Part shown: in pieces, positions 37,738 to 39,158 of the stretch | How positions within the stretch are numbered: position 1 is the stretch's first letter | Layout: the number at the start of each line of letters is the position of its first letter | Assembly (NCBI RefSeq): GCF_900104925.1 | Contig: NZ_LT629735.1 | Span: 2,450,291 to 2,514,290 of the forward strand | Source of the DNA: Opitutus sp. GAS368 | GTDB taxonomy: Bacteria > Verrucomicrobiota > Verrucomicrobiia > Opitutales > Opitutaceae | Reading direction: 5' to 3' | DNA: 64,000 nucleotides | Program-made: the position numbers and the translations under genes | The notes under the pieces: model-generated | What the model was told of the DNA's origin: nothing | Databases searched by the model: none | The model's input: the letters and a program-made list of their open reading frames with translations, nothing else

Positions 37738-37856
37738 ACCACGGATTGCACGGATTAACACGGATAGGTAACCCCAACCTGTCATTCTGAACGCAGCGAA
37801 GAATCCAGTGGAGCGGACTTCGCTCCGCACGGTCGCGTTCATTTCACTGGATCCTT
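37738..37856. repeat. left half of long palindromic intergenic repeat split by IS110
   Basis: Two repeat blocks lie here: 37738-37766 (ACCACGGATT, then CACGGATT and CACGGATA) and 37780-37810 (TGTCATTCTGAACGCAGCG onward). The second block continues into nested stems: ATCCAGTG (37803-37810) with CACTGGAT (37845-37852), and GGAGCG (37810-37815) with CGCTCC (37821-37826). The mirror images of both blocks lie right of the IS element at 39093-39158. Both are widespread-looking intergenic repeat types rather than parts of the transposon. Confidence 0.8.
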
Positions 37857-37984
37857 GTATGTCTTGGGCGATGAAAGTTGAAAAGGGTTTGGCCCGAGCC
37901 GGGCTCCGAGAATGGGCCCGATGGCTCGTCGGAGGAGGCCGGCTTGGGCTGGGTTGCCAAGTCAGTCCGGGTGGATTGACTGGA

Positions 37985-38157
37985 GGCCGCCCACCAGGGC
38001 GTTCGCCGTGCAGGCCGCACGGTGGACGGCAAGACCGACAGATCGCTGGATCCTTGGGCCCTCGAGCCCGTAGTGAAGCCGGGTCGCGGTCTTGTGCCTG
38101 GTCAAACCTCGAACCGCTGAAAGAGTCATGAACTCGTATTACAAGGTAGAGTCGACC
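37985..38157 (+). ncRNA. candidate IS110 bridge RNA
   Basis: The target loop is closed by CAAGACCG (38030-38037) with CGGTCTTG (38087-38094). Inside, the left guide CTGGATCCTT (38046-38055) equals the left target (37847-37856). Then come a GGGC/GCCC hairpin (38056-38069) and the right guide GTAGTGAAG (38070-38078), which pairs with the right target CTTCGCTGC over 9 positions, two of them G-T. The donor loop is closed by GGTC (38100-38103) with GACC (38154-38157) and CTC with GAG. Its left guide ACCGCTG (38113-38119) equals the element's right end (39086-39092). Its right guide TACAAG (38140-38145) is the reverse complement of the left end CTTGTA. The 5' limit is uncertain; CCGTGC/GCACGG (about 38006-38022) may be the 5' stem-loop. 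Confidence 0.78.
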
Positions 38158-39084
38158 GAACCTGTGCGGTACGTCAGCTTGGATATCTCCAAGGCGCGCC
38201 TGGACTACACCATTGCCGGCCAGAAGTGCCGGCAGGTCCCGAACACGGCAGCGGGCATTGCCACGCTGATCACCCTCGTCCAGCCGCTGCCGGGAGTGCG
38301 CGTGGTATGCGAAGCGACGGGCGGGTATGAACGCCGGTTGCTGGAGCAGCTGCACCAAGCGAGCGTACCGGTCTGCCGCTTGCAGCCCGGGCGGGTGCGT
38401 AACTTCGCCCGGGCGGAGGGCACGCTGGCCAAAACCGACAAGATTGATGTGGGGCTGATCTATCGCTACGCTTGCGCCATGCATCCCCGCGTGGAGAAGC
38501 CGCCGCTGCCCGAGGTAACCGCGTTGCGCGAGCTGCTGGATTATCGCCGGCAGCTGGTAGATCAAGGCACGCAAACGGCCAACCGGCTGGAAACAGCAGG
38601 CCCGACCTTGCAGGCCTTGCTGCAGGCGCAACGCGAGCAACAAGCCGCCGCCCTGGCCAAGGCCGACGAGTTGGTGGCGCAGCAGGTGCGGGCGCATCCC
38701 GCCCTGCGGGCCAAGGCAGAGCGGATGCAGCAGTTGCAAGGGGTCGGTCCGGTGCTGGCGACGACGCTGTTGGCGTACCTGCCGGAACTGGGCGAAGAGG
38801 ACGACAAGCGCATCGCCGCCTTGGTCGGAGTGGCCCCGCATGCCCACGACAGCGGCGAAACCTCCCGGCCGCGCCATGCCCGCGGTGGCCGCGTGGAGGT
38901 CCGCAACGTCCTGTACATGGCCGCAGTCAGTGCCTCCCAGCACAACCCGGTCCTGTCGCTGTTCTATCAGCGACTCCAGGCCGCCGGCAAACCCGCCAAC
39001 GTCTGCCTGCTCGCCGTCATGCGCAAAATGATTGTCGTGCTCAACCGCATGCTCAAAGACCCACACTTTACCCTTGTCGGCTGA
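38128..39084 (+). CDS. IS110-family transposase (bridge-RNA-type recombinase)
   Basis: The 318-residue protein has the IS110 layout. The N-terminal RuvC-like DEDD domain carries Asp19 ('SLDISKARLDY'), Glu62 ('CEATGGYE'), and Asp104 and Asp107 ('AKTDKIDVGLI'). A coiled middle follows (about 140-200), then the C-terminal Tnp domain beginning 'LQGVGPVLATTLLAYLPE' with the likely catalytic Ser242 in 'HDSGETSRPRH' and 'GGRVEVRNVLYMAAVSAS'. All residues known to matter are present, so it looks active. The ATG at 38128 lies within the donor loop of the candidate bridge RNA. Confidence 0.93.
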   Translation: MNSYYKVESTEPVRYVSLDISKARLDYTIAGQKCRQVPNTAAGIATLITLVQPLPGVRVVCEATGGYERRLLEQLHQASVPVCRLQPGRVRNFARAEGTLAKTDKIDVGLIYRYACAMHPRVEKPPLPEVTALRELLDYRRQLVDQGTQTANRLETAGPTLQALLQAQREQQAAALAKADELVAQQVRAHPALRAKAERMQQLQGVGPVLATTLLAYLPELGEEDDKRIAALVGVAPHAHDSGETSRPRHARGGRVEVRNVLYMAAVSASQHNPVLSLFYQRLQAAGKPANVCLLAVMRKMIVVLNRMLKDPHFTLVG

Positions 39085-39092
39085 CACCGCTG

Positions 39093-39158
39093 CTTCGCTG
39101 CACTCAGGATGACAACCCTTGCTGGTTTTTATCCGTGCCCATCCGTGAAATCCGTGGT
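39093..39158. repeat. right half of the palindromic repeat split by IS110
   Basis: CTTCGCTGCACTCAGGATGAC (first 20 bases from 39093) is the inverted partner of the TGTCATTCTGAACGCAGCG block at 37780. ATCCGTG...ATCCGTG...ATCCGTGGT (39131-39158) is the inverted partner of the ACCACGGATT block at 37738. The order is mirrored, as expected if both halves were one long imperfect palindrome before the IS arrived. Confidence 0.8.

What the first reader, a model, noticed from the sequence alone, without database searches (positions are those of the whole stretch)
37985..38157. IS110 bridge RNA whose four guides match target and donor at this very insertion
The left non-coding end folds into two internal loops. 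In the target loop the left guide CTGGATCCTT (38046-38055) equals the left flank, and the right guide GTAGTGAAG (38070-38078) pairs with the right flank CTTCGCTGC (39093-39101). In the donor loop ACCGCTG (38113-38119) equals the right end of the element (39086-39092), and TACAAG (38140-38145) complements the left end CTTGTA (37854-37859). Each loop has closing stems and a hairpin between its guides, as in the described IS621-type bridge RNAs. Four independent matches in one 110-nt stretch are unlikely by chance. The general mechanism is known; this RNA and its target are, to my knowledge, not described.
Basis: partly seen in the sequence, partly recalled or inferred. Interest (0 to 1): 0.9.

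Follow-up and report, generated by a model that had tools for sequence, protein, structure and literature searches.

The report
IS110 bridge RNA targeting genomic repeats
A jumping gene in an Opitutaceae bacterium carries its own guide RNA, whose four guides match the repeat it sits in and its own two ends; this is a new, well-supported case of a known mechanism, and beside it lies a conserved hairpin that unrelated jumping genes and small phages of the same phylum also carry.

Summary
All four guide matches are at the stated coordinates. Six near-identical copies in the genome fix the element (37854-39092, core CT), and all six sit in one orientation at TGGATC|CTTC of REP-like repeat arms. 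The transposase is IS110-family (IS621 match E 2.7e-28, DEDD and Ser aligned). Guide positions covary with flanks in relatives: 39 right guides pair with their own right flank (4.3 of 5 positions beyond the core, 1.8 when swapped, z 13.7), and left guides also match (0 of 20,000 permutations). Bridge-RNA helices show compensatory changes. So this is an RNA-guided IS110 insertion targeting REPs: a new member of a known kind (bridge RNA/seekRNA, 2024; REP targeting known earlier). No transcript was tested.

One thing goes beyond the finding. Upstream of the claimed RNA start, 37894-37947 is a covarying hairpin with core CGAGAATGGG-N-CTCGTCGGAG. The core recurs in 64 of 289 sampled Verrucomicrobiota genomes, inside ends of unrelated IS families (IS3, IS256, IS21, ISL3, IS481-like, another IS110) and in four Microviridae contigs, always on the gene-coding strand. 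It is not in Rfam; no description was found. Best guess: a single-strand replication-initiation site (inferred).

The parts
37854..39092 (+). Complete IS110-family insertion sequence (1239 bp), CT core at both junctions
   Evidence: Six copies >=99.9% identical in the genome with identical ends
38128..39084 (+). IS110 transposase (DEDD + Transposase_20)
   Evidence: Pfam PF01548/PF02371; NCBIfam NF033542 'IS110 family RNA-guided transposase' 183 bits, cut-off 140; IS621 structure 8wt6 E 2.7e-28 with DEDD and Ser aligned
37994..38101 (+). Bridge RNA 5' part: CCAGG/CCTGG closing stem, stem-loop 38001-38027, target loop 38031-38093
   Evidence: Compensatory changes: stem-loop 9 of 11 pairs, target-loop stem 7 of 7 pairs, 16 relatives
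38046..38055 (+). Left target guide CTGGATCCTT (equals left flank plus core)
   Evidence: Matches 8-9 of 9 in all six copies; covaries with left flank in relatives
38070..38078 (+). Right target guide GTAGTGAAG (pairs with right flank)
   Evidence: Pairs with own right flank; covaries in 39 relatives, 0 of 20000 permutations
38108..38151 (+). Donor-binding loop, closed by CTC/GAG, hairpin 38123-38135; overlaps the start of the transposase frame
   Evidence: Nearly invariant in 16 relatives
38113..38119 (+). Left donor guide ACCGCTG (equals right end of element)
   Evidence: Direct reading; relatives change guide and end together, e.g. ACCGTTG, ACAGTTG, ACCACTG
38140..38145 (+). Right donor guide TACAAG (complement of left end CTTGTA)
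   Evidence: Direct reading
37845..37855 (+). Left target half (CACTGGATC) plus core CT
   Evidence: All six copies end in TGGATC|CT
39093..39114 (+). Core plus right target half, remainder of the REP-like arm
   Evidence: All six copies continue CTTCNCT...TCAGGATGAC
37780..37806 (+). Other arm of the interrupted REP-like repeat
   Evidence: About 111 intact arms of this type in the genome
37894..37947 (+). Conserved hairpin (core 37907-37934) shared with unrelated IS families and microviruses; function not shown
   Evidence: CM R1 63 bits; covariation; contexts

Best explanation
The left end encodes an IS621-type bridge RNA. Its target loop (38031-38093) pairs through two guides with the two halves of a REP-like repeat arm, TGGATC-CT-TC(G/A)CT; its donor loop (38108-38151) pairs with the joined ends of the excised circle, ACCGCTG-CT-TGTA. 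The IS110 recombinase then joins the two at the CT core. Shown: the anatomy, the ends, targeting of one motif by six copies, guide-flank covariation and structural covariation. Inferred from IS621: transcription from the circle junction, binding to the recombinase, and the strand-exchange chemistry.
For: Four guides at the stated places, not reached in 3000 resamples. Six copies, same site and orientation in REP arms; all six in GGATCC-type arms although 20 of 30 sampled intact arms are GGATTC (Fisher p 0.004). Right guide at a position fixed without looking at the flank: 4.31 of 5 pairs beyond the core with own flank against 1.81 swapped, z 13.7, 27 of 39 fully paired; left guide z 8.6. Relatives with other guides sit in other targets, e.g. 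GAATGAG/CTCATTC, GGGTCAG/CTGACCC, AAAAAAG/CTTTTTT. Helices covary: 133 double-change cells against 40 in shuffles. Transposase IS110-type with IS621-aligned DEDD and Ser.
Against: No transcript or activity data. Three of six insertion sites have a T at the fifth right-flank position, which the guide does not pair. No Rfam model scored it. The minimum-energy fold of 37985-38157 is only moderately better than shuffles (z -2.2).
Confidence: 0.95

Rival explanations
1. The guide matches are remnants or coincidence: the transposase protein itself recognises REP repeats, and the left end merely holds look-alike sequence.
For: REP recognition by proteins is known (e.g. REP-associated tyrosine transposases). 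The right guide mismatches three of six sites at one position.
Against: In relatives 30-55% identical the guides change in step with the flanks, and four ordered matches are not reached in 3000 resamples.
Confidence: 0.02
2. The functional RNA is longer than 170 nt: transcription starts at the circle junction and includes the 37894-37947 hairpin as its 5' stem-loop. (A variant of the best explanation, not exclusive with it.)
For: In relatives with a short left end the same hairpin directly precedes the target loop. It covaries. Junction sequence TTGTCG-N17-TATGTC is weakly promoter-like (by eye).
Against: The window group has its own stem-loop at 38001-38027 closed together with the target loop. 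The hairpin also occurs in IS families and phages that have no bridge RNA.
Confidence: 0.35
3. The structured left end is mainly a 5'-UTR regulator of transposase translation, as shown for ISPpu9 (PMC8450116), with the donor-loop hairpin hiding the start codon.
For: The possible ATG 38128 lies in the donor-loop hairpin 38123-38135. ISPpu9 has a structured 5'-UTR and two sRNAs.
Against: Does not explain guide-flank covariation. May be an additional role rather than an alternative.
Confidence: 0.1

Closest known systems
IS621 and its bridge RNA (E. coli; PMC11208160, PMC11208158)
   Same: IS110 recombinase with DEDD and Ser, left-end RNA with target and donor loops each holding two guides, CT core, insertion into REP elements
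   Different: Distant protein (phmmer 103 bits over 300 aa); different REP target; longer left end (274 nt before the frame); longer right target guide; extra upstream hairpin 37894-37947
seekRNA of IS110/IS1111 elements (PMC11187229)
   Same: Upstream non-coding region determines an RNA with regions matching both target strands; natural re-targeting between relatives
   Different: Not shown experimentally here; no evidence on processing to 70-100 nt
ISPpu9/ISPpu10 of Pseudomonas putida (PMC8450116)
   Same: IS inserted in REP sequences, structured region upstream of tnp
   Different: Other host and REP; no antisense sRNA tested here
Single-strand initiation sites (phiX174 primosome assembly site, G4 origin, plasmid sso): comparison for the 37894-37947 hairpin, from general knowledge
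   Same: Stable hairpin on the packaged strand of ssDNA phages and on mobile elements; some copies with DnaA-box-like sequence in the stem
   Different: No sequence relation tested; core CGAGAATGGG/CTCGTCGGAG not described in the literature searched; function unproved

Membership tests
IS110 family | DEDD (RuvC-like) plus Transposase_20 domains, catalytic Ser | tested here: met
   alignment to IS621 8wt6 with D, E, D, D and S aligned
IS110 family | Long left and short right non-coding ends (IS110 rather than IS1111 group) | tested here: met
   Left end 274 nt before the frame, right end 8 nt after the stop
IS110 family | Circular intermediate with abutted ends | not testable with these tools
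   Needs PCR or long reads
Bridge RNA (IS621 type) | Target loop whose left guide equals the left target and right guide complements the right target, core included | tested here: met
   covariation in relatives
Bridge RNA (IS621 type) | Donor loop matching RE and LE around the core | tested here: met
   guide and right-end variants change together
Bridge RNA (IS621 type) | Conserved stem-loops with internal loops | tested here: met
   92.5% of cells paired, 33 pairs with changes on both sides; the donor loop hardly varies and is not independently tested
Bridge RNA (IS621 type) | Transcribed, bound by the recombinase, programs insertion | not testable with these tools
   Needs RNA-seq, binding and insertion assays
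REP-targeting insertion sequences | Multiple copies at one position of a repeated palindromic sequence | tested here: met
   6 of 6 copies; about 111 intact arms
Single-strand initiation site (for hairpin 37894-37947) | Located on a strand that becomes single-stranded | tested here: inconclusive
   4 of 4 microvirus copies on the coding (packaged) strand; in IS always inward from the near end where ends were defined
Single-strand initiation site (for hairpin 37894-37947) | Recruits primase or helicase to ssDNA | not testable with these tools
   Biochemistry needed

The most novel reading that the evidence does not exclude
The hairpin at 37894-37947 is a host-specific single-strand replication-initiation site (primase- or primosome-loading) of Verrucomicrobiota. 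Unrelated transposons and ssDNA phages each acquired it: the transposons to convert single-stranded or figure-eight intermediates into double-stranded circles, the phages to make their complementary strand. It sits just inside one IS end and points inward, where a helicase loaded on the displaced strand would follow the fork through the element.
Probability: 0.35. Interest if true: 0.85.

Novelty: new member of a known kind. Interest (0 to 1): 0.5.

Why it matters
It adds a clear natural bridge-RNA system from Verrucomicrobiota, with six sibling insertions and relatives carrying different guides, which is useful for learning guide rules and as a candidate programmable recombinase. The hairpin beside it, shared by unrelated IS families and microviruses, points to a host factor that many mobile elements depend on, and it can be tested with purified replication proteins.

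Tried and rejected
Rfam search: nothing at or near threshold. Chance as the source of the guide matches: rejected. First alignment A1 mixed strands for some loci and was discarded. Hairpin as a host chromosomal repeat: rejected for this genome, where the model finds only the six IS copies. Hairpin as a cis-regulator of transposase mRNA: unlikely in general, since it lies antisense and downstream of the transposase in several IS. Most raw pattern hits in viral contigs lack paired arms and are chance; only L206, L208 and L213-L216 were kept. 79 related microviruses lack the hairpin. Literature searches for such a hairpin or for single-strand initiation sites in IS found nothing.

Full report
What is there. 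The window holds a complete 1239-bp IS110-family insertion sequence, 37854-39092. The genome is a single 4.15-Mb contig with six copies differing at most at one base. The nearest named relative is an Oleiharenicola MAG (89% protein identity, Opitutaceae). The transposase (38128-39084) matches PF01548 and PF02371, passes NCBIfam's cut-off for 'IS110 family RNA-guided transposase' and aligns with the IS621 recombinase of known structure at E 2.7e-28, with the D, E, D, D and Ser catalytic positions aligned.

Checking the observation. The right guide pairs at 9 of 9 positions with the right flank, two as G.U. Summed over the four guides in order, the match is 31 of 32; 3000 first-order resamples of the left end reach at most 26.

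Sibling copies. All six copies sit at TGGATC|CTTC of REP-like repeat arms, in the same orientation. The genome keeps about 111 intact arms of the form GATYCTTCNCTNCNNTCAGRATGAC and 22 perfect CTGGATCCTTCNCT sites. Of 30 sampled intact arms, 20 are GGATTC and 10 GGATCC, yet all six insertions are in GGATCC arms, which the left guide matches exactly (Fisher p 0.004).

Relatives. Element ends and the guide positions were located in relatives using the conserved donor guide and left-end motif. After removing redundant RNAs, the right guide, fixed by its distance from the donor guide and a following AGC/AGA (not by the flank), forms 4.31 of 5 pairs beyond the core with its own flank against 1.81 when flanks are swapped (39 elements, z 13.7, 0 of 20000 permutations; 27 of 39 fully paired). 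The left guide behaves the same (35 elements, z 8.6 with core, 6.1 without; 0 of 20000). Relatives with other guides sit in other targets, while L042 (89%), L013 (69%) and L014 (55%) sit in REP-like sequence. The donor guide and right end also change together (ACCGCTG, ACCGTTG, ACAGTTG, ACCACTG).

Structure. On 16 relatives, 51 proposed pairs (bridge RNA helices plus the upstream hairpin) are 92.5% paired against 76.1% in shuffles, with 133 double-change cells against 40, and far above every slid control. The target-loop stem has changes on both sides in 7 of 7 pairs. The small target-loop hairpin drawn for the window sequence does not hold in the relatives as drawn. The donor loop is almost invariant, so its pairing is not independently tested.

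Mechanism. The anatomy matches the bridge-RNA model of IS621 (PMC11208160, PMC11208158) and the seekRNA model (PMC11187229). Transcription, binding and recombination are inferred. IS elements in REP sequences have long been described (PMC1525189; IS621 and ISPpu9). The finding is therefore a well-supported new member of a known kind.

Beyond the finding: a shared hairpin. The left end upstream of the claimed RNA start contains, at 37894-37947, a hairpin with core CGAGAATGGG-N-CTCGTCGGAG on a long variable stem. A search for CGAGAATGG-N5..14-CTCGTCG in 289 Verrucomicrobiota genomes finds it in 64, against about five genomes for the reversed control pattern. The core is constant partly because it was the search pattern, but the arms were not selected: on 25 diverse copies they pair at 96.4% of cells overall, with 183 double-change cells against 58 in shuffles. 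The next base pair above the core (C-G, U-A or A-U) also covaries.

Where it occurs. By Pfam and NCBIfam the neighbouring genes include IS3, ISL3, IS256, IS21 (IstB) and another IS110 transposase, and an IS481-like one below NCBI's cut-off. Not every copy has a transposase nearby (for example L246, L247, L180), so some may be solo or non-autonomous copies. In four multi-copy IS types with defined ends the hairpin lies 50-170 nt inside one end and points inward, whether sense or antisense to the transposase. In this genome it exists only in the six IS copies. It is rare in Planctomycetota (4 of 149 genomes in the phylum of Rhodopirellula). In viral contigs, four of the six hits with paired arms are Microviridae (major head protein phrog_514 and/or Rep phrog_942), each on the gene-coding, hence packaged, strand and not at a fixed place relative to Rep; L214 is weak (23 bits). 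Seventy-nine related microviruses lack it. Nine of 44 non-redundant copies carry a DnaA-box-like sequence in or next to the stem, 0.17 expected from shuffled flanks.

Reading of the hairpin. Sharing across unrelated transposases and ssDNA phages, the strand in the phages, and position inside IS ends suggest recognition by a host factor. A primase- or primosome-loading single-strand initiation site is my preferred guess (about 0.35). Alternatives are an RNA insulator or processing site against read-through transcription, or a 5' domain of the bridge RNA in IS110 only. No paper describing it was found in the searches made; the library lacks most subscription journals.

Limits. There is no RNA or activity evidence. 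Kinship of relatives was not modelled in the permutation tests beyond removal of near-identical RNAs. Several relatives are MAG contigs with uncertain species labels.

Noticed in passing
37894-37947 (+), core 37907-37934: Covarying hairpin with constant core CGAGAATGGG/CTCGTCGGAG, present in ends of unrelated IS families across Verrucomicrobiota and in four Microviridae contigs (L206, L213, L214, L216). Not in Rfam; candidate single-strand initiation site.
   Followed up: partly
L166 1474-1550, L181 1477-1553, L215 1237-1285 and others: Nine of 44 non-redundant hairpins carry DnaA-box-like sequence (TTRTNCAYA) in or next to the stem, against 0.17 expected in shuffled flanks.
   Followed up: partly
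39093-39099 and copies L003, L005, L006: Three of six insertion sites read CTTCTCT on the right, but only one of the listed intact REP arms has T there, and the guide does not pair with T. Unexplained.
   Followed up: no
38123-38151: The donor loop overlaps the first codons of the transposase frame: ATG 38128 lies in the donor-loop hairpin. Several relatives have an AAGGAG-like ribosome site there and may start further downstream. Possible link between RNA binding and translation.
   Followed up: no
L246 2036-2088 and the matching place in L247: Hairpin copies between host genes with no transposase found nearby, with arms like those of an IS256 copy (L248): possible non-autonomous (MITE-like) derivatives.
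   Followed up: no
L236 1489-1542 (genome G556, phylum of Rhodopirellula): A genome with 12 copies of the hairpin outside Verrucomicrobiota; the copies read closely (L236, L238-L240, L242) lie beside an IS21 IstB-like gene.
   Followed up: partly
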